Below are positions 8,661 to 60,300 of a stretch of 64,000 nt of DNA, piece by piece. Numbering within the stretch: the first letter of the stretch is position 1; the number at the start of each line of letters is the position of its first letter. Both the position numbers and the translations under genes were made by a program. The stretch comes from Cololabis saira (lineage: Eukaryota; Chordata; Actinopteri; Beloniformes; Belonidae), in assembly GCF_033807715.1 (NCBI RefSeq), contig NC_084609.1, positions 34,671,850-34,735,849 of the forward strand, given 5' to 3'. The notes beneath the pieces are model-generated. The model did no database searches. It was not told the DNA's origin and worked only from the letters and a program-made list of their open reading frames with translations.

Positions 8661-9374
8661 GTGAATATTCCTGTCACCCCAGATGTAACAATCAGTAAGA
8701 AAATAAATGTGTTTGTATTTGGGTTTCCATGCCAACAGGGCCTGCCGATGGAAGCTGGCCAACTCCACTAGTCATTTTTCAATCTTATAATCCCGGTTTA
8801 TGTTGGGGAAAGGTACTCCGATTACTGTCTTTATGCTTTATTAGTCAACCATCTCACCAAAAAGAAAAGATTTCAGTTTTCAAATGTCAAGACTTGAAGA
8901 CCAGCATCTGTTTTTTACTCTTTTGGAAGTGAGAGGGTTGGCCTCGCCCCTAAGGATTCCCTGCTACGCTTTACTGTAAATGAACTCTACGTTTTCAAAT
9001 AAAAACATGCCCTCATTGTAACTATAATGAACCGAAAGGATGTTTGTTATTTTAGCAACTAAACCACTTTCCTACCCCTGTTGGTCCGAAATCAGTCCCC
9101 ACCCCAATCTGTAATCTGTTTAGACGTCAAAGACGGTTATAAACCGCCTGGCAAGAACCAAATCTAATTTTATTCCATCTTAAGAAATGGAAAGCCCCAT
9201 CTGGCTATACTGTCATCACTATTTTTACACTATTCTTCCATTTGTATGTCCTTGTCTTTGGAAACAGATAGCAGATGCATCTAAATGATGAGGTAACAGC
9301 TATAGTTTCATCTTGTTCTGTCTGTGATTGTGGTGAAAACAGTGGTGTTCAGACCCAAACCACTGTGGCACGTC
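8661..9374. other. No gene seen
   Basis: Low-copy AT-rich sequence without supported exons. Confidence 0.4.
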
Positions 9375-9597
9375 CAGTACTGGAGTTGTAAAAAAAAAAA
9401 TTCAGGGAGGATGGTGGATTTGATCATATGGGGACAGATAATTTGTGCTGATTACAAATAATATAATATATTACAAATAATAGCAGTGACCAAAACAGCT
9501 GCAGAAATACTGCAGGAATGACATAGCAGCAGTTAAATGCAGCCTTCTGTAAGCTTTAAATATCCACTGGGCTTACATCAAATACATCAAAACATCA
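9375..9597 (+). mobile_element. hAT-type MITE, family 2 (left-end fragment)
   Basis: Starts CAGTACTGGAGTTG and follows the family 2 left half (GGATGGTGGATTTGATCAT). It ends at ATACATCAAAACATCAAAA. The rest is missing. Confidence 0.75.
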
Positions 9598-17563: not shown

Positions 17564-17847
17564 TGAGTGGAGTCGCCAACTTTAGCATAAACGTGTTTCA
17601 GTCAATAACTGAACAGAACACCTCTCTGCTCTCTGAGTGATGGATATTCCTTCCTCGTGTGCCGTTTTTCTCATTCCTCATGTACACTTTTTATACTCTT
17701 TCCAACTCAACATGTTTCCAAGTGGTTATTTTAGGAGCCGTGGGTATCGGACTCAGACATTTAACCGGCCTCCAGGGAACGCTCAGCCAAGTCTGGGCTG
17801 CAACATTAACAGGCTCAGCTTTCCTGACTGGGACCATCTCTTCCAGC
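17564..17847 (+). other. Unassigned sequence with a short hydrophobic frame
   Basis: Following TTTCCAAG, the plus frame reads VVILGAVGIGLRHLTGL and then a Ser/Thr/Ala-rich stretch (TLTGSAFLTGTISS). No family is recognised. A hAT MITE is inserted at its end. It could be a chance frame or a lone decayed exon. Confidence 0.25.
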
Positions 17848-18647
17848 CAGTACTGGAGTTGTAAAAAACAATCAGGGGGGATGGTGGATTTGATCATATG
17901 GGGACAGATAATTTGTGCTGATTACAAATAATATAATATATTACAAATAATAGCAGTGACCAAAACAGCTGCAGAAATACTGCAGGAATGACATAGCAGC
18001 AGTTAAATGCAGCCTTCTGTAAGCTTTAAATATCCACTGGGCTTACATCAAATACATCAAAACACAACAATAAAAAACACTTTTCTGAACTTATCAATAT
18101 GACTCTGTCCTTCACAGGATAAGTAACATGGATCACTGCAAAAACTCACAATCTTAACAAGAATATTTGTCTTATTTCTAGTTAAAATGTCTCATTTTAG
18201 TAAAAAATTCTCATTACACTTAAAACAAGACTCATCACTGGAAAAAACAACAATTTTCACCTGTTTCAAGTAGATTTTCACTTGAAATAAGTAGAAAAAT
18301 CTGCCAGTGGAACAAGATTTTTTGCTTGTAATGAGAAGATAAATCTTGTCCCACTGGCAGATTTTTCTACTTATTTCAAGTGAAAGTTTACTTGAAACAG
18401 GTGAAAATTGTCAAATAAGTTATTTTTCTGGTGTTATTTTTCTGGTGATGACTCTAAATGTTGAAATAGCAGTAAAACCACATTCATTGATGAAATGACA
18501 TAAGGGATGGAAAGGAGGGATGGCAGTTTTACAGGGGGGATGATTTGGACCGTTTTTATTTCAGGGGGGGATGATTTGGACCGTTTTTATTTCAGGGGGG
18601 ATGCCATCCCCTCTCATCCCCCCTCATCCCCCTCAACTCCAGTTCTG
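17848..18647 (+). mobile_element. hAT-type MITE, family 2 (copy 1) with perfect 8 bp duplication
   Basis: CTTCCAGC flanks the element at 17840-17847 and 18648-18655. Ends are CAGTACTGGAGTTG and CAACTCCAGTTCTG. Order inside: AT-rich left block, the 'CACTGCAAAAAC' foldback, then a G-rich array of a roughly 30 bp unit (GGATGATTTGGACCGTTTTT ATTTCAGGGG; two units here). Other copies: 35455-36271, 46669-47613, 58088-59767, fragment 9375-9597. Confidence 0.92.
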
Positions 18648-18854
18648 CTTCCAGCGGGACAGAGAGTTCAGCTATTTAGTAAGCTTTACCCGTACATTTC
18701 CAGGAGTTTACGTTCTGAACAGTGGGGCATGTTTATGGGCTGCAGCGCCGAGGCCGGCATCGTGCACAGCATCGTGCACAGCCCTGCACGTTCAGGCCCA
18801 GAGCCAGCTAAGGAAAATGAAGTGAGGGACTTGGACGGCAGCCACAAATACTCA
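18648..18854. other. Unassigned spacer between two elements
   Basis: About 200 bp of low-copy sequence between the hAT MITE and the composite element. No exon is supported. Confidence 0.35.
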
Positions 18855-18981
18855 GTACCCAGGGGGCCAAGCAGAAAAACAGACATGGAGCGTTGTAAAA
18901 GGTTTGACACCAGAAATGATATCTAGGACCTTCAAGGATCACAACCTGGGTGGACAACCCGGTCAACTAGCTGCTGGAAAG

Positions 18982-20022
18982 CTACAGGGGGCCAGGGGGA
19001 ACTGCTTTTCCATTATCCATAGACCATCCAAATTCTGTACACAAGGGAATCTTTGGCTTGGATATGTGTGCACTCTTGTCAATGAGTGTTGCTAGAGCAG
19101 CCCTTTTCAGGTGCAGGAGAAATGCTTCTTCTGTTGGGGGTAGTAGCTTTAAGAGTGTTGATCTGTTGTTCAGGAACTTGTATGCTCTCAGCTTGCCCAG
19201 ATCTGAATCCTCAAAATGATCGGCTGTGGCTGTATACACAGCTATGGTGAGGTCCCGTGCCTGATTAAGGACGTCATCTGTTATGGCATCGGTTGGGTTC
19301 TCACCAAATTCTTCCAGTGCCGGTATGTCCAGAATCATGCTTCTCTTAAACCACGCCTTCTTTCCACTGAAATATGGGTAACTAGTTGTATCTCTGCCAC
19401 TCAGACTGTGGACAAAGGGCATTGCACAACACTGTGAAGGTCCCAGTGCCACAACCATTTTATGGATGGGCAAGTATGCATTTTGGGCTGTTCTCACCCA
19501 CAGCTCTGCTAGATCACTAAGATGCGTTGCACCTTAGTACAGGCACATGACAATGATGTCAGTGTCATTTGCATGTATGACAACTCTGTCAACTCCTTCA
19601 TTCTGGACACTGTAGAGGGTGTGGACTATGATCCTGGTGTCAGCCTCCTGCTGTGTAGACTCCAGAGCAGGAACATGTATAACAGACCCTCCTGTCAGCA
19701 CTACACTCTTGGTGTCTTCTTTGAAACCACCACCCAGGTAGAGATGAGTTGGGCCAAGAACAGGTTCCAGTTGCTCATTCTCAGACCATTTGTCACAGAA
19801 GAAGCTCAGAAGATTTGCTTTGTTAGCTGAGACTTCAAAAAACTCCTTTGGGTCTGGAGCTGTGAACTGCTCACTGACTTCATACACTTTGGCTGGTTTT
19901 GATCGGGCATATCTCTTTTCCTGCTCAGCTGATTTAAGGCTGGGTTCACTGTACCTGTCACAACAGAAGTGTATGATCTGAGTGGGAAGGTAACTGGGTT
20001 GGACATCTCTGTGAATCAGCAC
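18982..20022 (-). pseudogene. Inverted, truncated copy of the nuclease/CXC protein gene
   Basis: The minus strand repeats the central coding part of the plus-strand ORF at 20025-22214. It covers the CDRY, EADT, ANDTDIIV and SGRDTTSY regions. Codon TAT of the intact copy (Tyr in CLYYGATHL) is TAA here (19534-19536), a premature stop. Further differences include Gly to Glu in the CDRYSGPS motif and Leu to Pro in HISKLKI. The N-terminal half and the C-terminal CXC domain are missing. It cannot encode a working protein; its main consequence is that it forms a 987 bp inverted repeat with the intact copy. Confidence 0.85.
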
Positions 20023-20024
20023 AA

Positions 20025-22214
20025 ATGCTGCCTTACCTCACTGCAGCAGGCCACTATAAATATGGACAGCAATCTTTGCCTTTGTATTTGGTTGAGATGA
20101 AGAAACTACCTGAAACAGCTCCAGAGGTACATGAAGCGCTGATGGCAGGTGCATTTGTTGGGAGGAGAGCAGATGGCAGTCATAATGGGGTCTCCCCTGA
20201 CATGCTTCTGGAGCAGACATATAATGCAGATGCCAAGGAGGCAAGCGGTTTAGATGGCATTACACTCAACCCTGCTGCCCGGATGAAATGGCTTTACACA
20301 AAACCACTCACTGCAGCTATCTCTGCAGAGCTCAAGTCTATGTTGCACCTCCATTCCTCCAAACCACACCATGAATCTGGTTGGAGTCGTGTCACCAGGG
20401 ATGCTGAGATGGTAGTCAAGGTCATGGCAGCAGTAGAGACCAACCCATTCACAACAGCCACACCATGCCTGATCAACATATCAACTGGACAATGTGCAGA
20501 TTCCACAGTCAAGGACAACCTGACAAATGTGAAAGCACTTGGTTTGAGGGCTCTGTCAGAGCCCTCAGTGACCAGTGATCAGAAGAAGACAAGTATTGTG
20601 AAGCTTAACACCTTCCACACACAAAACACAAAATCCAAGAAGTCTGGGGGTAAAACATTTGCATCTGGCAAGAGCAATGAAGTTACTGCCCTTCTGCGCA
20701 TGACACAGATCATTGCCAGTGGCGGAGAGCTTAACATTGTGGACTTCATCGGCAACCACGAGTGCAGTGACTTTCCCCCATCCCTCTTCCAGGAGGATGG
20801 CAGTATGAGAACTGATACCAAGGCAAGCCTAGTAAAGATTCTGAAAGAGGAGACCAAAGTGAACAGCATCCCTAATCTGCTTCAAGATGGCAAAAAGACA
20901 GCACTAGTAGTTGATGCTATGTGTGCCATAAGACACTGGTCTTTTCAAAAAGGTGAACTATTTGGAACTATTGCTGAGCGATACAAAAACTTGCTGCTGA
21001 ATGATGTGCCTGCTGGCACTCAGATCATACACTTCTGTTGTGACAGGTACAGTGGACCCAGCCTTAAATCAGCTGAGCAGGAAAAGAGATATGCCCGATC
21101 AAAACCAGCCAAAGTGTATGAAGTCAGTGAGCAGTTCACAGCTCCAGACCCAAAGGAGTTTTTTGAAGTCTCAGCTAACAAAGCAAATCTTCTGAGCTTC
21201 TTCTGTGACAAATGGTCTGAGAATGAGCAACTGGAACCTGTTCTTGGCCCAACTCATCTCTACCTGGGTGGTGGTTTCAAAGAAGACACCAAGAGTGTAG
21301 TGCTGACAGGAGGGTCTGTTATACATGTTCCTGCTCTGGAGTCTACACAGCAGGAGGCTGACACCAGGATCATACTCCACACCCTCTACAGTGTCCAGAA
21401 TGAAGGAGTTGACAGAGTTGTCATACATGCAAATGACACTGACATCATTGTCATGTGCCTGTACTATGGTGCAACGCATCTTAGTGATCTAGCAGAGCTG
21501 TGGGTGAGAACAGCCCAAAATGCATACTTGCCTATCCATAAAATGGTTGTGGCACTGGGACCTTCACAGTGTTGTGCAATGCCCTTTGTCCACAGTCTGA
21601 GTGGCAGAGATACAACTAGTTACCCATATTTCAGTGGAAAGAAGGCGTGGTTTAAGAGAAGCATGATTCTGGACATACCGGCACTGGAAGAATTTGGTGA
21701 GAACCCAACCGATGCCATAACAGATGACGTCCTTAATCAGGCACGGGACCTCACCATAGCTGTGTATACAGCCACAGCCGATCATTTTGAGGATTCAGAT
21801 CTGGGCAAGCTGAGAGCATACAAGTTCCTGAACAACAGATCAACACTCTTAAAGCTACTACCCCCAACAGAAGAAGCATTTCTCCTGCACCTGAAAAGGG
21901 CTGCGCTAGCAACACTCATTGACAAGAGTGCACACATATCCAAGCTAAAAATTCCCTTGTGCACAGAATTTGGATGGTCTATGGATAATGGAAAAGCAGT
22001 TCCCATCTCTTCTCCAAAGCCAGCCTGGCCTGTGTCAATGAACAAGACAATCTCATGTGGATGTGTCAAAGGTTGCCAGAAGAACTGTTCCTGTGCAAAG
22101 AAGGGAGTTCCATGCTACATAGGGTGCCGTTGCCAGGGACTGACAACCAGATGCAACAGATTAAACACAGTCACATTGGAGTTCAGTGGCAGCAGCAGTG
22201 AATCAGAAAACTAG
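20025..22214 (+). CDS. PIN/XPG-like nuclease with C-terminal CXC domain, transposon-type (Academ-like)
   Basis: Single-exon 729-residue frame with no stop. Around residues 290-345 there is a PIN/FEN-type pattern: a hydrophobic strand ending in Asp (LVVDAM, about residue 295), then HFCCDRYSGPSLKSAEQEKR, resembling the DRY...K..ER..R segment of XPG/Asteroid-like nucleases. Further acidic motifs follow: QQEADTRII (about 444), HANDTDIIVM (about 470) and LSGRDTTSY (about 526), the order expected of such a metal-dependent nuclease. Residues about 676-710 hold a Tesmin/TSO1-like CXC cluster (CGCVKGCQKNCSCAKKG then CYIGCRC). No helicase or RNase H-type transposase domain is visible. Such proteins are multicopy in fish. 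XPG-like nucleases are known from Academ-type DNA transposons, so a mobile-element origin is inferred. The start is the first ATG next to the inverted junction, so the N-terminus is probably truncated. Confidence 0.75.
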   Translation: MLPYLTAAGHYKYGQQSLPLYLVEMKKLPETAPEVHEALMAGAFVGRRADGSHNGVSPDMLLEQTYNADAKEASGLDGITLNPAARMKWLYTKPLTAAISAELKSMLHLHSSKPHHESGWSRVTRDAEMVVKVMAAVETNPFTTATPCLINISTGQCADSTVKDNLTNVKALGLRALSEPSVTSDQKKTSIVKLNTFHTQNTKSKKSGGKTFASGKSNEVTALLRMTQIIASGGELNIVDFIGNHECSDFPPSLFQEDGSMRTDTKASLVKILKEETKVNSIPNLLQDGKKTALVVDAMCAIRHWSFQKGELFGTIAERYKNLLLNDVPAGTQIIHFCCDRYSGPSLKSAEQEKRYARSKPAKVYEVSEQFTAPDPKEFFEVSANKANLLSFFCDKWSENEQLEPVLGPTHLYLGGGFKEDTKSVVLTGGSVIHVPALESTQQEADTRIILHTLYSVQNEGVDRVVIHANDTDIIVMCLYYGATHLSDLAELWVRTAQNAYLPIHKMVVALGPSQCCAMPFVHSLSGRDTTSYPYFSGKKAWFKRSMILDIPALEEFGENPTDAITDDVLNQARDLTIAVYTATADHFEDSDLGKLRAYKFLNNRSTLLKLLPPTEEAFLLHLKRAALATLIDKSAHISKLKIPLCTEFGWSMDNGKAVPISSPKPAWPVSMNKTISCGCVKGCQKNCSCAKKGVPCYIGCRCQGLTTRCNRLNTVTLEFSGSSSESEN

Positions 22215-23054
22215 ACACTGATACTAAAACCTGTTATACCTGCTGTAATTTGGAGATGTATTATGTCAGGTTACTTTTTTTTCTTTTCTTTTTTTTAAAA
22301 TCAATCTAGTTCTGGCCACGAAAATGGCTATTTTGTATTCAATTTATGAAAATCCAAATGAAAATAAATGTTTTGCTGACAGGTATCTTGTTTCTTATTA
22401 TCATCAATATCTAAGTATCAATATAGGATGTTATTCAAATGATAGAAGAAGAAATAGCACTTGACCTCATCTCGTGGAACACTGACTGGAAATTCAGTTT
22501 CAGTACAATTCTCGATTTGGGATATAGAGCAGACATTTGGCCACAGCTAGTGCAGCCTTCGAGATAGAAAGGCCATCTTCGACTCCAATTAAAGCTTATG
22601 AATTAAGGAAGTTTTCTATATACATGGTAGGCATAGATATTCTCCATAAAGTACTGAAAAATATAGATTTTCATGAGAATTTGTTAGGCGAGCAGTACTT
22701 TTTTTTGTCTTTTTTGGGATGTTGAGAGTGATATCTCAAAATAGAGTTGCAGCAAGGCCCAGAATATTATTTTCCTGTCTTCTCCTATGTGTCAACATAC
22801 TCTCTGCCAAATTTTATAGTTCTATGATTATTAATGCCATTGTAGTACCTAAATATCTGCAGATACATAATTTCGCCTGGAAAATGTCCCAAAAAGAGGG
22901 TTTTTGGCCCCCTGTAGCTTTCCAGCAGCTAGTTGACCGGGTTGTCCACCCAGGTTGTGATCCTTGAAGGTCCTAGATATCATTTCTGGTGTCAAACCTT
23001 TTACAACGCTCCATGTCTGTTTTCCCCAAAAATTGGGTTTTGCCCCCTGGGTAC

Positions 23055-23329
23055 AGTGTAGAACCGTGAGCTACTACCGCTGGGCCTGGACCTCATCACA
23101 GAGACAAGAAATCATTGTGCAAAAAAGCAACAGTACAATGAATTGAAAGGGTCTAAGAAGTGCAAAGCACTCTGCAGAGATTTGATGTTTTGTTTTTGTT
23201 CTCGACATTTTGACTTTTTTCTTGAAGTGCACAATAAAAAAAAATCTTCCCCTCTCAAATATTTTTTCTCCTGCATAGCTCTGATACTTTTCCGTCAGCT
23301 GTCCCGTAAAATTCAGATTCCAATTTAAC
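23055..23329 (+). mobile_element. Spacer with fragment of CGACATTTTGAC-type MITE
   Basis: CTCGACATTTTGACTTTTTT and the CTCCTGCATAGCTCTGATAC segment at about 23195-23300 match 6700-6815 and 33290-33415. The first 140 bp is low copy. Confidence 0.5.
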
Positions 23330-25700: not shown

Positions 25701-26239
25701 AAAGAGGAAGGGAGAAGGGAGAAGGAAGGAGAGAGCAGGAGGAAAGAAGGAACAGTAGAATTAGGTCATTTTGACCCGAAGACAGTACAAGGGTTGTGAA
25801 GTCCATGAAGAATGGACAGAATTGATCTGATTCGTTAAATGTTATTAAATTGAGAATCATGTTTTTGGTTATTGGAGAGGTTGAGTGAATTCATGATTTA
25901 TTTGTCAAGATAATCTAATTTGTTCTTTCTTTATTTAGAACCATCATCCTGAAAACTTCACAGAATCAACATTCACCTTGTGAATTTAAATACATTGGAT
26001 GCTTGATTGATTGATTGCAATCCTGTTTTGTGGCTCCGGTCAGAACATTCATTCACTACAATCTGTGGTACAAATTGTCTCATTAAAAGGAGACTTTAGT
26101 GAAAGTGTTTGCTCTAAATGTTACTATGATTCTTTTATTATTTACAGTGTTTCTGTTCAGAAGTGTCTGGGTGGCGTGACAGCTGATGTGGCTCAGTCTG
26201 ACAGAAAGGAGACTGCTGAGTCTCAGGAACAGAAGAGCA
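25701..26239. other. No gene seen; possible asb13 copy A 3' end
   Basis: The minus strand contains an AATAAA hexamer (TTTATT on the plus strand near 26135), about 510 bp below the asb13 stop codon. It could serve as the polyadenylation signal, but this is unsupported beyond position. No other exon. Confidence 0.3.
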
Positions 26240-26646: not shown

Positions 26647-32276
<5,630 letters not shown>

Positions 32277-35454: not shown

Positions 35455-36271
35455 AATGGATGGTGGATTTGATCATATGGGGACAGATAATTTGTGCTGA
35501 TTACAAATAATATAATATATTACAAATAATAGCAGTGACCAAAACAGCTGCAGAAATACTGCAGGAATGACATAGCAGCAGTTAAATGCAGCCTTCTGTA
35601 AGCTTTAAATATCCACTGGACTTACATCAAATACATCAAAACACAACAATAAAAAACACTTTTCTGAACTTATCAATATGACTCTGTCCTTCACAGGATA
35701 AGTAACATGGATCACTGCAAAAACTCTAAATCTTAACAAGAATATTTGTCTTATTTCTAGTTAAAATGTCTCATTTTAGTAAAAAAAATCTCATTACACT
35801 TAAAACAAAACTCATCACTGGAAAAAACAACAATTTTCACCTGTTTCAAGTAGATTTTTACTTGAAATAAGTAGAAAAATCTGCCAGTGGAACAAGATTT
35901 TTTTGCTTGTAATAAGAAGATAAATCTTGTCCCTCTGGCAGATTTTTCTACTTATTTCAAGTGAAAATTTACTTGAAACAGGTGGAAATTGTCAAATAAG
36001 TTATTTTTCTGGTGATGACTCTAAATGTTGAAATAGCAGTAAAACCACATTCATTGATGAAATGACGTAAGGGATGGAAAGGAGGGATGACAGTTTAACA
36101 GGGGGGGTGATTTGGACCGTTTTTATTTCAGGGGGGGATGATTTGGACCGTTTTTATTTCAGGGGGGGATGATTTGGACCGTTTTTATTTCAGGGGGGAT
36201 GATTTGGACCGTTTTTATTTCAGGGGGATGCCATCTCCCCTCATGGTCTTCCCCCATTAACTCCAGTACTG
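35455..36271 (+). mobile_element. hAT-type MITE, family 2 (copy 2, left end lost)
   Basis: Begins at GGATGGTGGATTTGATCAT, without its terminal repeat, and ends AACTCCAGTACTG. It carries four units of the GGGGATGATTTGGACCG array. Confidence 0.88.
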
Positions 36272-38152: not shown

Positions 38153-40185
38153 CCTTGAACCGCCACCTTACTGTGGTGGAGGGGTTTGTGTGCCCGAGTG
38201 ATCCTAGGAGCTATGTTGTCGGGGGCATTACGCTCCTGGTAGGGTCTCCCATGGCAACCAGGTCCTGGGTGACGGGCCAGACTAAGAGCGGTTCATAAGC
38301 CTATCATGAGAAGAATTAAACCAAGGACCGTAACGTAATCGTAACCGTAATCGTCCGGATCGGCGTCACCGGGGCCCCTCCCTAGAGCCAGGCCTGGGGT
38401 TGGGGCTCGTAGGCGAGCGCCTGGTGGCCGGGTCTTTGCCCGTGGGACCCGGCCGGGCTCAGCCCGAAACGGCGACGTGGGCCCGCCTTCCCGTAGGAAG
38501 GACTGTGAGAGGCCGGTGCCATGTGGGCTGGGTAGCATTAGTGGCGGGGCCTCGACGACCCAATCCCTGGACCAAAAATTCCCTGGACCCTGGCAGTAGG
38601 GACATGGAATGTCACCTCGCTGGGGGGGAAGGAGCCGGAGCTTGTGCGTGAGGTTGAGAGATACCGGCTAGAGATAGTCGGGCTCACCTCCACACATAGC
38701 TTGGGCTCTGGAACCAGCTCCTTGAAAGGGGCTGGACCCTCCACTACTCTGGAGTTGCCCAGGGTGAGAGGCGGCGGGCTGGTGTGAGCTTGGTTATAGC
38801 CCCTCAGCTCAGTCTCCATGTGTTGGAGTTCACCCCGGTGAACGAGAGGGTCGCTTCCCTGCACCTTCGGGTCGGGAAAAGGTCCCTCACTGTTGTTTGT
38901 GTCTACGGGCCGAACAGCAGTGCGGAGTACCCGGCCTTCTTGGAGTCCCTGGGAGGAGTACTTGATAGTGCTCCAACTGGGGACTCCATTGTTCTACTGG
39001 GGGACTTCAACGCTCACGTGGGCAATGACAGTGATACCTGGAGAGGTGTGATTGGGAGGAACGGCCTCCCCGATCTGAACCCGAGCGGTGTTTTGTTGTT
39101 GGACTTCTGTGCTAGTCACAGTTTGTCCATAACAAACACCATGTTCAGGCATAAGGGTGTCCATCAGTGCACGTGGCACAAGGACACCCTAGGCCGGAGG
39201 TCAATGATTGACTTTGTTGTCGTTTCATCTGACCTTCGGCCGCATGTCTTGGACACTCGGGTGAAGAGAGGGGCTGAGCTGTCAACTGATCATCACCTGG
39301 TGGTGAGTTGGATGCGCTGGTGGAGGAGGAGGTTGGACAGACCGGGCAGACCCAAACGGATTGTGAGGGTCTGTTGGGAACGTCTGGCTGAGCCCTCTGT
39401 CAGGGACATCTTCAACTCTCACCTCCGGGAGAGCTTCTCTCGGATCCCGGGGGAGGCGGGGGACATCGAGTCCGAGTGGACCATGTTCTCTGCCTCCATT
39501 GTCAACGTGGCAGCTCGAAGTTGTGGACGCAAGGTCTCCGGTGGCTGTCGTGGCGGCAATCCTAGAACCCGGTGGTGGACACTGGAAGTACAGGATGCCG
39601 TCAGACTGAAGAAGGAGTCCTACCGGGCTATGTTGGCCGGTGGGACTCCTGACGCAGTAGATGGGTACCGGCAGGCCAAGTGAGCAGCAGCTCGGGCGGT
39701 CCTGGAGGCAAAAACTCGGGTCTGGGAGGAGTTCTGGGAGGCCATGGAGGAAGACTTTCGGTCGGCCTCAAGAAAATTCTGGAGGACTGTTCGGCGCCTC
39801 AGAAGGAGGAAGCAGTACTCTGTCGGCACCGTTTACGGTGCGGGTGGGGAGCTGTTGACCTCGACTGGGGACATCTGGAGCTGGAGGAAGAGCTGGAGGA
39901 AGAGCTGGAGGAAGAGCTGGAGGAAGAGATGGAGGAAGAGCTGGAGGAAGAGCTGGAGGAAGAGCTGGAGGAAGAGCTGGAGGAAGAGATGGAGGAAGAG
40001 ATGGAGGAAGAGCTGGAGGAAGAGCTGGAGGAAGAGATGGATGAATATATGGATGAAGAGATGGAGGAAGAGATGGAGGAAGAGATGGAGGAAGTGTCTG
40101 GGGTGAAGTGTCTGGGGTGAAGTGTCTGGGGTGAAGTGAGTGTCTGGATGGATGGATGGATGGATGGATGGATGGATGGTTGGAT
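38153..40185 (+). mobile_element. RTE/Rex3-like LINE, internally deleted
   Basis: The 5' region (CTTGAACCGCCACCTTACTG ...) leads into an apurinic-type endonuclease frame (38784-39683; start chosen loosely). It is recognisable by [32 protein letters not shown] ([12 protein letters not shown]) and STDHHLVV, the conserved residues of LINE endonucleases. TGA at 39681-39683 interrupts it where relatives read on; after it the frame continues as EAMEEDFRSASRKFWRTVRRL up to LLTSTGDI. The whole reverse transcriptase is then missing: the sequence passes through a GAGGAAGAGCTG array (39880-40095) into the element's 3' end (GAGGAAGTGTCTGGGGTGA) and a (GATG)n tail. Inactive. Confidence 0.85.
39880..40095 (+). 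repeat. 12 bp array at the deletion joint of the LINE
   Basis: About 18 units of GAGGAAGAGCTG / GAGGAAGAGATG. It sits exactly between the 5' and 3' parts of the LINE, where both parts contain CTGGAGGAAG-like sequence. Confidence 0.93.
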
Positions 40186-40294: not shown

Positions 40295-49677
<9,383 letters not shown>

Positions 49678-54332: not shown

Positions 54333-57300
54333 CTGAGACAGGACAAAATACAATAAAAATCATTTTACTCAACATTTCTGCCGTGTTTTTTTTCTCTTCC
54401 TCAAAAAACAAACAAAACAAAAAAAAAAAGTCCAACCCCAATTTTTGAAAACGAGACGCCATAAATCAGTGGTCCCCAACCGTTTCGGTTTAATGTCTGA
54501 CAATATTTTCACGGCCCAATCTAAAGGTGTAGCTGATAAACACTAAATAAAATGACAAGATCGGCATTAAAAACTGGTATTTTCTCTATAATAATAATAA
54601 TGATAATAATAATAATAATAATAATACATCACTGTCGAAAAAATAAAATAAAATGGAAATTGTAAATTACCTTTAATATGAGTATTTCTATAAATGTGTT
54701 TTTATGTTTGTTTTCTCATTAACGTTATTTAAAGCCAGGCTTTTATTTTATTTGTTATATATTGAGGAGACCGATATTTAGTGCTTTTATTTTGAAGGCG
54801 TCTCGCCGACACCTCGTCAACATCCGGCGCTTTGGACTTTAACGGTAAAAGTTTAACGCAGTAGAAAGTAGTGAATGTAGAAAGACTAACTATTTTATTT
54901 GATTCCTTTATTGCTCTTACGGTGTGTTTGCAGTGTATTTACATCCAAGGAATAAAAACATTGTGAACCATCAGTTTGAGAGTCATCCATCATCAGTCGG
55001 GGATTCTACAGAAATTATTTTTTCTGTCTGTGTTCCCGGTACCAAATGACCCACGGTCCGGTACCGGGCCGGGGCCCGGAGGTTGGGGACCACTGAATTA
55101 AATGGTCAAATGAGGGAAAGACGTCACAGATGTGACTTCACAGCGGGTTACGCCCACTGATTGTCAGAAAGACTGAGTGTCAGAAAGACTGAGTGTCAGA
55201 AAGACTGAGTGTCAGCGTAAAGCGTTCCAGCGTTCAGTTTGAGCAACTGGAAAACATCTAGAATGGGAAAGAGCTGTTGTGTGATCGACTGTACTCATAG
55301 ATTTAGCAAGAAATCTGAGTTATTGTTTTACAGACTACTGAAAAATAAGCTTAAGAGAGACAAATGGATCACTGCAATTCACAGAAACAACTGGTACGAG
55401 GATCCCATTTTGTATCAGGTAATGTTGGATTTTTGGGTAGCTAACGTTAAACGGTCAAATCATAAAGTTCGGTGTCCTCATCACTTTAATTTCTGTTTTG
55501 AAGTCGGACCAAGCGTCAAGACTTCAAGCTTTGCTTCATGTATTTCCCCAGTGTTATCACAGAAATCCGCTTTTTGGCCGTATCTCAGCGAGAAACGTTC
55601 ATTTTGCACCTGAAACACATGTAAATGGTTTGGTGAGTCCAATAATGAAAGGAGTCACTAAAAACAACTATACAGACTACCCCCTTCAATTTTCTGATGT
55701 TTTCAATAGCTATATATATATATATATATATGATATTAAAAAATATATAATGCATATTAAAAATGCATAAATTCCTTAGGTTTTTACCAACTTGGTATTA
55801 TCCATTAATATACAGGACTGTCTCAGAAAATTAGAATATTGTGATAAAGTTCTTTATTTTCTGTAATGCAATTAAAAACGGTGCAAGCCTTTTATTATTT
55901 TAATATTGCTGATCATGGCTTACAGCTTAAGAAAACTCAAATATCCTATCTAAAAAAATTTGAATATTCTGGGAATCTTAATCTGTAAACCATGATCAGC
56001 AATATTAAAATAATAAAAGGCTTGCAATATTTCAGTTTATTTGTAATGAATCCAGAATGTATAACATTATTTATTTATTTTTTATTTATTTATTTATTTT
56101 TTTTAAATTGCATTACAGAAAATAAAGAACTTTATCACAATATTCTAATTTTCTGAGACAGTCCTGTATATGCAGACAAAAACCCAAAACAAAAAGCAAC
56201 CCTCCTTTCACTAAGTGAATGTGTGTAGCAGCCCCCTCCCCCCAGCAGGGGGCGTGCTTGTGTTTAGTGAGGACTTGTCTCTTGTTTCCTGGCTGCACTC
56301 AGACTTGACAATAATGGCAGGACAGCGTTCTGGTGGACACGGCAATCCCCTCCAGCACAGCACCAGTTCTCCTGACTCAGAAAGTTCAAAAAGCTGGTCC
56401 GACTCCAAACCAGCACTGGAACTGACTGGTTAAAAGGGCCTGCACCTGGTGTTGGAGTTTGGTTTTATTCCCAGCTTAAAGTGGATTTGCTTTATTAAAC
56501 AAAGTAGACACACGTTTCTTGTTCTCCACTTACTACTCACATGAAATGTCAGCAAATAGCATGGAAGAGTAAAGAGCACATCCTTCCAACAGCTATGTTA
56601 ATGCAGCTCCGCTGGTTACTGGCACATTTACAGATGAAAACAGCTGATCAAATGAAGGTACAACTCTACGGACAACCTCAGGCAGCTCAGTCAAACTCAA
56701 CAAGCAACAACAAAGAGCAGCAGCAACCTCGTTCCCTGTGTAGATGCAGCTCCACTGTAACAGCAGTGGAGCAGCAACACAGCAGCTGCTGGACAAACAT
56801 CCAGCAAATCAAGTCACACCAAGTGATTGAAGCTAAAATGATCCCTTAAAGCAGAGGTTTTCAACTGGTTTTGTCCCAGTCCCACCATTATAACCAAGAA
56901 GACCCTTTGGGAATGTTTGTTTTATTTTGCACCTTGCTTTTAAATAAGAGTATGGGCCTATATAGGCTATTTATTTTCATCAGTTTATATTTTTATTTGC
57001 ACCTTTTGCTATGAAAAGACAAAATAAAAAACAGTCAATGAAAAATGAACAATAGGAAGTCAAGAGCGCTTATAATATTACAAAGTTCACTCTCACTCAT
57101 TTGACATAATTTGGATTGGTAAATTATTCACAAAAATGAATAGTAAATGGAAAATAAATTGAGTCTAAAGAATAAATATATATTTTTAAAATTATTATTG
57201 TTTTCCATTTACAATTTCACGGGCCACCTGCAATACCACCACGGACCACCAGAGGGCCTCGGTGACACCGCTTGACAAACCCTGCCTTAAAACAGTGTCT

Positions 57301-60300
57301 CCCAACCTGGGGTCCAGCCCCCCTGGGGGGCCCAGAGATCTCTGGGGGGGCACCAAATTTTGTCTGAATCAACTGAAATATTGCAAACCTTTTATTATTT
57401 TAATATTACTGATTAAATAGTTGATTTGTAATGAATCCAGAATGTATGACATTTTGGTTTTTTAATTGCATTACATAAAATCACAATATTCTAATTTTCT
57501 GAGACAGTCCTGTATATGATATATATTAAAAATCCATGTATGCCTTAGGTTTTTACCAACTTGGTATTATCCATTAATACATATGCAGACAAAAACACAA
57601 AACAAAAAAGAACCCTGGCTGGTCTTAGACACAAGTAGGGGGGAAGAAGGAAAAAAGGTTGGGAACCAGTGCCTTAAGTAGCCTGGATTTCTTGTGAATA
57701 AGGTGGAGCGTGTGATCCCCCAGCGTGATTCCCCGTGTCCTTACCTGGCTGTCGGTGCCCAGGTTAGTGGGTTCAAACTGGTCGCTGATGCTCACAAACT
57801 TCTGCTCGATGGGCTCCAGCAGGTCCAGGGCCGGCTTCACCTCCTTCTCAGGGTCGCTGGTCTCCACCGTGGTGCTGGCAATCGCAATGTATTTACCCTG
57901 CGCTGCCACGTTGTGAGCAAAGGAGATCATGCACACGTAGATGTCTGGAAAGAAACGAGCAGGAGTGAATGTTTGGTCCTCTAACCCTGGAGGTGGAGTG
58001 TTGTTTTATGTTCAGATGTTCTGATACACTTCCAATACCGAGTACTGTTAAGATACCAGTGTTAATTCCCCTCAGATTGAGAACAACCAGTACTGGAGTT
58101 GAGGGGGGTTGAGGGGGGATGAGGGGGGATGGCATCCCCCCCTGAAATAAAAACGGTCCAAATCATCCCCCCTGAAATAAAAACGGTCCAAATCATCCCC
58201 CCTGAAATAAAAACGGTCCAAATCATCCCCCCTGAAATAAAAACGGTCCAAATCATCCCCCCTGAAATAAAAACGGTCCAAATCATCCCCCCTGTAAAAC
58301 TGACATCCCTCCTTTCCATCCCTTATGTCATTTCATTAATGAATGTGGTTTTACTGCTATTTCAACATTTAGAGTCATCACCAGAAAAATAACTTATTTG
58401 ACAATTTTCACCTGTTTCAAGTAAATTTTCACTTGAAATAAGTAGAAAAATCTGCCAGTGGAACAAGATTTTTCTACTTATTTTAAGTGAAAATCTACTT
58501 GGAACAGGTAAAAATTGTTGTTTTTTCCAGTGATGAGTCTTGTTTTAAGTGTAATGAGATTTTTTTAACTAAAATGAGACATGTACAATGAGACCAATTG
58601 GTTGCATTTTGCGACCTTTTCTGGAGGCCGTGCGACATAGTTTTTTAACTAGGAGCACCAGTGCGACTTACAAATCCAACCCTCTCGCCCATTTCTCTCT
58701 TTTTTTTCATAATAATGTGGAGGAGCGGAAGCAAGTGTCTGTGTCTGTGTCATGTGTGTCTGGATGCGCACTGCGAGGCAGGGGGGGCGCCAGTAACCAT
58801 AGCAACGCGCAGCATTTTTAGTACGTGTGAACTGTGTGCAAGATTAGGGTTACAGGATTCAGGAGTGGGTGTTGAGTAGAAAATGCTGTGTCGTTTGACC
58901 ATAAAGTAACACTATGAAACGAACTATAGCAGTGATGGGCAACCCGGGGCTCTTGCGACTTTATTTGATAGGTGCAGTGAAAGACAAACACGTAGGAAGT
59001 GGGGGCAAAATATGCCACGACTGGAATCCAACCCGCGTCGCTGTACAGGGGAAGGTTTATATGAGTCGCCTGCTAGACCCGTTGAACCATACGGGCGCGC
59101 GCTCCTGCTGAATTTTGCGTTTGTGGTGCACTCTCAAAATGGCAGGGAAAAATGCACGGCCAAACGAAAATATGAAGATAAACACAGGTCGATTTTAACG
59201 GAGTGGGAGAGTTTACAGCTCTGCATGTCGTCTTTTTTTTTCCGGAGACAGGCACTCGTCAATCCATCCATCCATCGTTAGCCCTCCCCGAAGATCAAAG
59301 TTTACCGTCAACATGCCAAATTAATTGTTAACTAAAATAAAAAATAGACTTTAACACCAGCTACTTTCTGCTACCTGCTGTAACCGTTAAAACATATGTC
59401 TTGTTAATGAGATTTTTTTACTAAAATGAGACATTTTAACTAGAAATAGGACAAATATTCTTGTTAAGATTGTGAGTTTTTGCAGTGATCCATGTTACTT
59501 ATCCTGTGAAGGACAGAGTCATATTGATAAGTTCAGAAAAGTGTTTTTTATTGTTGTGTTTTGATGTATTTGATGTAAGCCCAGTGGATATTTAAAGCTT
59601 ACAGAAGGCTGCATTTAACTGCTGCTATGTCATTCCTGCAGTATTTCTGCAGCTGTTTTGGTCACTGCTATTATTTGTAATATATTATTTGGAATCAGCA
59701 CAAATTATCTGTCCCCATATGATAAAATCCCCCATCCCCCCTGATTCTTTTTACAACTCCAGTACTGAACAACTATCAAATACAGAGCAGTTCTGCAGAA
59801 ACGACCACAGCCCCAGATGTTCCATTACAGTGAAAGTCAACGTTGGAACTGGTTCCTCCCAGAAAGGGAACCTACGGTTTTGTCCATGGTTGTTCTTGTT
59901 TTAGTCTTGAAACCACAGAATTGCGTAAGTAGCACGTCACAGCCTTCCTGGGGGGATTTTCCAGCCTAAAGTAATGTGATGCATCCAGGTAAATACTCAG
60001 ATTCCCTTATTTTTGGCAGTATCTCCAATACTGCTGTGATTACCAGACTCTTATCACCTAAGCTGCTCCAAGGTTTCTAGGTAAGCTCCCTCTCTTAGCG
60101 TAATCATCAAGGCCACGTTTCCACACAGCCGGGTATTTACAAAAACGGATATTTCTCCCTCTACGTTTTGAAAAATACCATCATTTCCAGGAACCTGCAT
60201 AAATAGCTGTTAAGGTGCTATGAGCAGCCAAACCTGCAGGGGGCAGTGTAACGAGAAGATAAAGTCATGCTAGCCAATCAGAATCCTGGAAAAATGCAGC

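What the first reader, a model, noticed from the sequence alone, without database searches (positions are those of the whole stretch)
18855..23054. Self-facing inverted copy of a nuclease/CXC transposon gene forming a 987 bp hairpin
The 987 bp arms 18997-19983 and 21018-22004 are equal in length and nearly identical, separated by about 1 kb that includes the start of the intact ORF. The left copy has a deletion joining its terminal 140 bp to the middle of the ORF and one nonsense codon. Transcription through the locus would give a long double-stranded RNA matching the coding region of the element family, a natural configuration for small-RNA silencing of its relatives.
Basis: partly seen in the sequence, partly recalled or inferred. 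Interest (0 to 1): 0.75.

Follow-up and report, generated by a model that had tools for sequence, protein, structure and literature searches.

The report
Fish transposon with self-inverted duplication
A broken copy of a fish jumping gene carries part of its own gene a second time, facing backwards, so any RNA copied across it would fold into a long double-stranded hairpin; the structure is real, but nothing yet shows that it silences its relatives.

Summary
In detail: arms 18997-19984 and 21017-22004 (988 nt, 8 mismatches) face each other across 1,032 nt. They lie inside one unit, 18856-23053, whose ends share TACCCAGGGGGC and are flanked by CAG, readable as a 3-bp target duplication. The right-hand ORF is not intact: homology to full-length relatives starts at the inner edge of the left arm, so 841-990 N-terminal residues are missing. 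What remains has seven near-invariant carboxylates (nuclease-like order, recalled) and nine near-invariant cysteines. Best filing: an Academ/AcademX-like transposon derivative, membership not proven. The host is a ray-finned fish, most likely an acanthomorph teleost. Most likely origin: break repair with a template switch, giving a structure like maize Mu killer. One transcript would pair 980 of 988 left-arm positions. Silencing is untested: there are no RNA data, and teleost AGO2 is reported to slice poorly (PMC11811051). Copy number in the host genome was asked for 15 times and never answered. I rate it a probable neutral relic, with a small chance of a vertebrate Mu-killer analogue.

The parts
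18856..23053 (+). Whole rearranged element, end to end (strand given for the retained gene)
   Evidence: Ends share TACCCAGGGGGC in inverted orientation
18853..18855 (.). CAG, possible left copy of a 3-bp target site duplication
   Evidence: Read directly; a 3-bp match arises by chance 1 in 64
23054..23056 (.). CAG, possible right copy of the 3-bp target site duplication
   Evidence: Read directly
18856..18994 (+). Left terminal inverted repeat: 12 bp tip, 8 differing bases (18868-18875), then 119 bp identical to the right end
22905..23053 (-). Right terminal inverted repeat: same 12 bp tip, 18-bp box (23024-23041) where the left end has 8 bp, then the 119 bp
18995..18996 (.). Joint 1: two extra G between terminal repeat and left arm
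18997..19984 (-). Left arm: inverted copy of the middle of the gene; carries a stop at 19534
19985..21016 (+). Loop: 1,032 nt with the first part of the retained ORF; joint 2 at 19984/19985
21017..22004 (+). Right arm: codons of the nuclease-like region (6 of its 7 near-invariant carboxylates)
20028..22214 (+). Retained, N-terminally truncated ORF (728 aa from the first ATG; open frame from 19977)
   Evidence: stop TAG 22212-22214
22056..22154 (+). Cysteine-rich (CXC-type) region, nine near-invariant cysteines
   Evidence: Pfam TCR in 3 of 41 relatives, none in the window ORF itself
22363..22368 (+). Only AATAAA of the element on either strand

Best explanation
It is one internally rearranged, non-autonomous copy of an animal DNA transposon, probably Academ/AcademX-like, in a fish genome. 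Shown: one unit with matching ends; the 5' half of the gene is gone; a 988-bp inverted copy of the nuclease-like region stands in its place; the RNA would fold as a hairpin. Inferred: a break in or excision of a complete copy was repaired from the right end leftward; synthesis reached mid-gene, switched to the other strand about 1 kb away, copied 988 nt backwards, and was joined to a short left end with two filler bases. The product cannot make a whole transposase. If transcription entered from the left repeat, or from the asb13-like gene that ends about 3 kb away on the other strand, it would give double-stranded RNA of the family; whether this happens is unknown, and a neutral relic is the default.
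For: One unit: shared tips, 119-bp identical end repeats, CAG on both sides. Truncation: in blastp against 11 relatives the match starts at ORF residue 4 in 10 and at residue 2 in 1; in the nine relatives of 1,582-1,749 aa that is residue 842-991. No terminal repeat at either inner joint, two filler bases at joint 1, as expected from template switching rather than nested insertion; PMC8277862 (passages) describes such gap filling in animal TIR elements. Both arms drifted separately: left arm derived at codons 360, 467, 497, right arm at 657 (numbered from 19977; relatives with the left-arm state 0 of 8, 0 of 7, 0 of 7; with the right-arm state at 657 0 of 4). Fold.
Against: No intact copy was seen as DNA, so the parent's left end, the true breakpoints and any microhomology at joint 2 are unknown; the own-genome search did not complete (15 times). 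The 3-bp CAG could be chance (1 in 64). In tblastn 7 of 11 relatives' matches run a little into the left arm, one (P0052) as far as 19887, probably chance extension. The nuclease reading has no significant Pfam, NCBIfam or PDB support.
Confidence: 0.75

Rival explanations
1. Mu-killer-like silencer: the locus is transcribed, the hairpin RNA becomes small RNAs (siRNA or piRNA), and these silence intact members of the family in trans.
For: Anatomy: partial inverted duplication of the gene between terminal repeats, as described for Mu killer (PMC3440606, abstract and passages); hairpin fold; no polyadenylation signal before the second arm on the + strand and none on the - strand of the element; a host gene ends about 3.1 kb away on the other strand.
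Against: No RNA data. Teleost AGO2 is reported to slice poorly (PMC11811051 passages). No sign of selection on the arms. In Mu killer itself PMC3440606 found short antisense RNAs unable to form the large hairpin and proposes a new model.
Confidence: 0.1
2. Protein-level repressor: the truncated ORF makes a protein that keeps the nuclease-like and cysteine-rich parts and interferes with the full transposase.
For: A 728-codon frame is open from an ATG at 20028 to 22214, with the conserved carboxylates and cysteines kept.
Against: 26 ATGs lie upstream on the + strand from the left end; the arm would pair with the coding region. With roughly 0.4% divergence per arm an open frame is expected to survive often without selection (inference).
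Confidence: 0.05
3. Nested or adjacent insertion of a second family copy in reverse, followed by deletion.
For: Would also give inverted copies of one family at 99% identity.
Against: No terminal repeat and no target duplication at the inner joints; CAG flanks only the outer ends.
Confidence: 0.1
4. Assembly artefact.
For: Long inverted repeats are prone to misassembly; no reads were available here.
Against: A foldback of one molecule would give identical arms; there are 8 scattered differences, with derived states in both arms. The arms have different neighbours, and both outer ends are kept with CAG on each side.
Confidence: 0.05

Closest known systems
Mu killer (maize MuDR derivative), PMC3440606, abstract and passages seen
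   Same: An internally deleted, partly inverted-duplicated copy of a transposon gene between terminal repeats; expected hairpin RNA.
   Different: Other transposon and a fish host; arms here are 988 bp with a 1-kb loop (Mu killer about 1.3 kb of mudrA on each side). In Mu killer both repeats come from the same end; here that is undecided. Transcription and silencing are reported there, unknown here.
Academ superfamily, AcademX lineage (PMC10045372 and PMC10294476, passages)
   Same: 3-bp target duplication and an encoded nuclease fit AcademX (3 or 4 bp, nuclease). Relatives' ORFs of about 1,590 aa lie on contigs of 5.5-7.6 kb, near the mean 5,565 bp given for Academ consensus elements in bivalves.
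   Different: No Academ reference sequence was compared; this copy is truncated and rearranged.
Gap-repair derivatives of TIR transposons (Pack-TIRs, abortive gap repair; PMC8277862 and PMC4678618, passages)
   Same: Internal loss and template switching at joints with little or no homology.
   Different: The extra sequence is the element's own gene in reverse, not foreign DNA.

Membership tests
Academ / AcademX transposon | 3 or 4 bp target site duplication (AcademX; PMC10045372 passage) | tested here: inconclusive
   CAG on both sides; one locus only, 1 in 64 by chance
Academ / AcademX transposon | Encodes a nuclease besides the transposase | tested here: inconclusive
   Seven near-invariant carboxylates in FEN/PIN-like order (recalled), but PIN_11 in 1 of 41 relatives at E 0.048 and no nuclease by PDB sequence/profile search
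Academ / AcademX transposon | DDE transposase related to known Academ proteins | not testable with these tools
   No Academ sequence held; the defining paper is not held; that region is missing from the window copy
Academ / AcademX transposon | Terminal inverted repeats | tested here: met
   Shared 12-bp tip and 119-bp identical stretch
Mu-killer-type silencing locus | Partial inverted duplication of the transposon gene between terminal repeats | tested here: met
Mu-killer-type silencing locus | Both terminal repeats derived from the same element end | tested here: inconclusive
   119 bp identical (0 differences expected with P 0.38 at the arms' divergence), but the tips differ by an 8 versus 18 bp box
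Mu-killer-type silencing locus | Transcript, small RNAs and heritable silencing in trans | not testable with these tools
   No RNA data available

The most novel reading that the evidence does not exclude
A vertebrate counterpart of Mu killer: a self-made hairpin derivative of an Academ-like transposon, transcribed in the fish germ line, seeds piRNAs or other small RNAs and silences its family, so that repair errors of the transposon itself supply new silencers.
Probability: 0.06. Interest if true: 0.75.

Novelty: new variant of a known kind. Interest (0 to 1): 0.33.

Why it matters
If transcribed, it would be a natural test of whether one hairpin derivative can start silencing of a DNA transposon in a vertebrate whose AGO2 is reported to slice poorly. 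If not, it is still a clear template-switch derivative of a little-studied transposon group, and a caution that a long open frame in such a copy is not an intact gene.

Tried and rejected
Relatives as DNA: none in viral contigs; in prokaryote genomes 11 pattern matches, none confirmed; no second copy in the window. Rfam and tRNA scans of the window were empty. Pfam on the ORF gave nothing. NCBIfam gave single-member weak matches, best E 0.002 and of unrelated kind. PDB searches gave no nuclease: one match at E 0.91 for the single sequence, 7 up to E 1 and 8 up to E 10 for the profile, best a sorting protein at E 0.01.

Considered and rejected: the element inside an asb13-like intron. The nearer gene's SOCS box ends at 26653, its stop is at 26647-26649 and an AATAAA at 26134-26139, so the element lies about 3.1 kb beyond its 3' end.

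Literature, ten searches: in the rows listed I saw no title or abstract start on a fish Academ hairpin; most lists were cut short, so this is no proof of absence. Passages of PMC10799480 and PMC8476124 were seen and not used.

Full report
The structure. Two arms, 18997-19984 and 21017-22004, are reverse complements over 988 nt with 8 mismatches and 1,032 nt between them. Among 37 inverted matches of at least 100 nt in the window (self-palindromes included, gap under 6 kb) this is the longest; it and the element's own 119-nt end pair are the only two above 96% identity.

The unit. The arms sit inside one element. Its tips read TACCCAGGGGGC on both sides (from 18856 and 23053 inward). Next come 8 bases on the left and an 18-bp box on the right, then 119 identical bases (18876-18994, 22905-23023). 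Just outside lies CAG on both sides, readable as a 3-bp target duplication; a 3-bp match occurs by chance once in 64. The right end holds two similar boxes, AGGGGGC(C)AAAA(A)CCCNNTTTTTGGG, at its tip and at its inner edge; the left end lacks both.

The gene. The frame from 19977 is open to the stop at 22212-22214. In blastp against 11 relatives the match begins at ORF residue 4 in 10 and at residue 2 in one. In the nine relatives of 1,582-1,749 aa that is residue 842-991, so 841-990 residues are missing; in P0003 and P0026 it is residue 415 and 409. In tblastn 7 of 11 relatives' matches reach a few codons further left, one (P0052) to 19887, which I take for chance extension into the arm. DUF6589 matched 4 of 7 relatives scanned, 2 of them above Pfam's cut-off; in P0003 it spans 210-501, of which 210-414 is absent here. 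The window ORF itself matches no Pfam family.

What the rest looks like. Seven carboxylates are near-invariant among the relatives that cover them: D296 39 of 39, D339 39 of 39, E443 34 of 34, D445 34 of 34, D470 32 of 34, D472 32 of 34, D528 32 of 33 (numbered from the ATG at 20028). Their order is that of FEN/XPG/PIN nucleases as I recall it. Nine cysteines (677-709) are near-invariant, 26 of 28 to 28 of 28 or 29 of 30. Over the 41 members of alignment A4, Pfam TCR (CXC) matched 3 (best E 4.9e-4), DUF6589 13, PIN_11 1 (E 0.048). The nuclease reading is unproven. The arms cover six of the seven carboxylates and none of the cysteines.

Host and neighbours. Two tandem ankyrin/SOCS genes lie on the - strand. 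The second, exons joined by eye, gave 1,847 matches, 120 listed; the best is 77% (asb13 of Pelmatolapia mariae), and the named rows I read are ray-finned fish, mostly teleosts. Its stop is at 26647-26649 and an AATAAA at 26134-26139, 3,081 nt from the element. In a tree of 41 proteins the window ORF pairs with a Siganus protein (99/97) within a five-row set that also holds a Pogonophryne protein (98/96); both fish rows cover under 40% of the columns.

How it arose. Joint 1 has two extra G; neither inner joint shows a terminal repeat; overlap at joint 2 cannot be measured without an intact copy. This fits break repair with a template switch. PMC8277862 (passages) describes gap filling with microhomology of median 2 bp in animal TIR elements; PMC4678618 (passages) names abortive gap repair as a known source of internal deletions. 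The order of events is inferred.

Age and drift. K between the arms is 0.0081; with assumed, not measured, rates of 2.5e-9 to 1e-8 per site and year that is 1.6 to 0.4 million years. Of 8 differences 4 are silent and 4 replacement or stop; 6.2 replacement are expected if neutral, P(4 or fewer) = 0.08. Against relatives (numbering from 19977) the left-arm state at codons 360, 467 and 497 occurs in 0 of 8, 0 of 7 and 0 of 7, and the right-arm state at 657 in 0 of 4, all four having the left arm's proline. So both arms have drifted. Four differences lie within 57 nt (P = 0.04), so conversion elsewhere in the arms is not excluded and the age may be too low.

What it could do. As one RNA, 18856-22400 pairs 980 of 988 left-arm positions in register, -2469 kcal/mol; with the left arm turned round, -1058. 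On the + strand the polyadenylation-like signals are ATTAAA 22160, AATAAA 22363 and ATTAAA 22588, all past both arms; on the - strand there is none. Transcription entering from either side would thus cover both arms. That is the anatomy of Mu killer (PMC3440606, abstract and passages). The same passages report short antisense RNAs that cannot form the large hairpin and offer them as a new model, so even there the hairpin route is not settled. PMC11811051 (passages) states that zebrafish lack efficient AGO2 slicing because of substitutions specific to teleosts, citing Chen et al. 2017 (not read). A piRNA route would not need AGO2 (recalled). I rate silencing at about one in ten and a neutral relic as the default.

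Filing. AcademX makes 3 or 4 bp duplications and encodes a nuclease (PMC10045372, passage); Academ consensus elements in bivalves average 5,565 bp (PMC10294476, passage), near the contig lengths that hold the relatives' ORFs of about 1,590 aa. No Academ sequence was compared and the defining paper is not held. I call it Academ-like, without claiming membership.

Limits. Copy number in the host genome, the most useful missing fact, was asked for 15 times without an answer. No reads and no RNA data were available.

Noticed in passing
window 40325-44355 and 26647-29720, - strand: Two tandem ankyrin/SOCS (asb13-like) host genes; the second resembles asb13a.2 of acanthomorph fish.
   Followed up: partly
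P0046 (Strongylocentrotus purpuratus LOC105441519) versus window 19986-22196: A sea urchin protein is 74% identical over 737 aa to the fish ORF and sits next to the fish rows in the tree, while a hagfish row matched at 52% over a quarter of the query (P0039). Horizontal transfer is possible but was not tested.
   Followed up: partly
window 22882-22911 and 23018-23048: Two similar boxes, about 25-30 bp with A/T-rich inverted halves, at the tip and inner edge of the right terminal repeat, absent from the left end; possible transposase binding sites.
   Followed up: partly
window 17841-18600: An interspersed repeat next to the element with further copies or parts near 35458-36227, 46811-47620, 58085-59767 and 9374-9594.
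   Followed up: no
window 28231-28921: A self-palindromic stretch, 740-column self-alignment at 80% identity, next to the asb13-like exons: a foldback or MITE-like element.
   Followed up: no
window 26751-27952: A minisatellite-like array open in three frames (such as RRPPDDRQTTA) between the last exons of the second asb13-like gene.
   Followed up: no
window 38700-39680: LINE-type endonuclease ORF (Pfam PF14529, E 1.1e-9).
   Followed up: no
window 55221-55610: ORF with a THAP domain (Pfam PF05485, E 7.4e-6), a gene exon or a transposase remnant.
   Followed up: no
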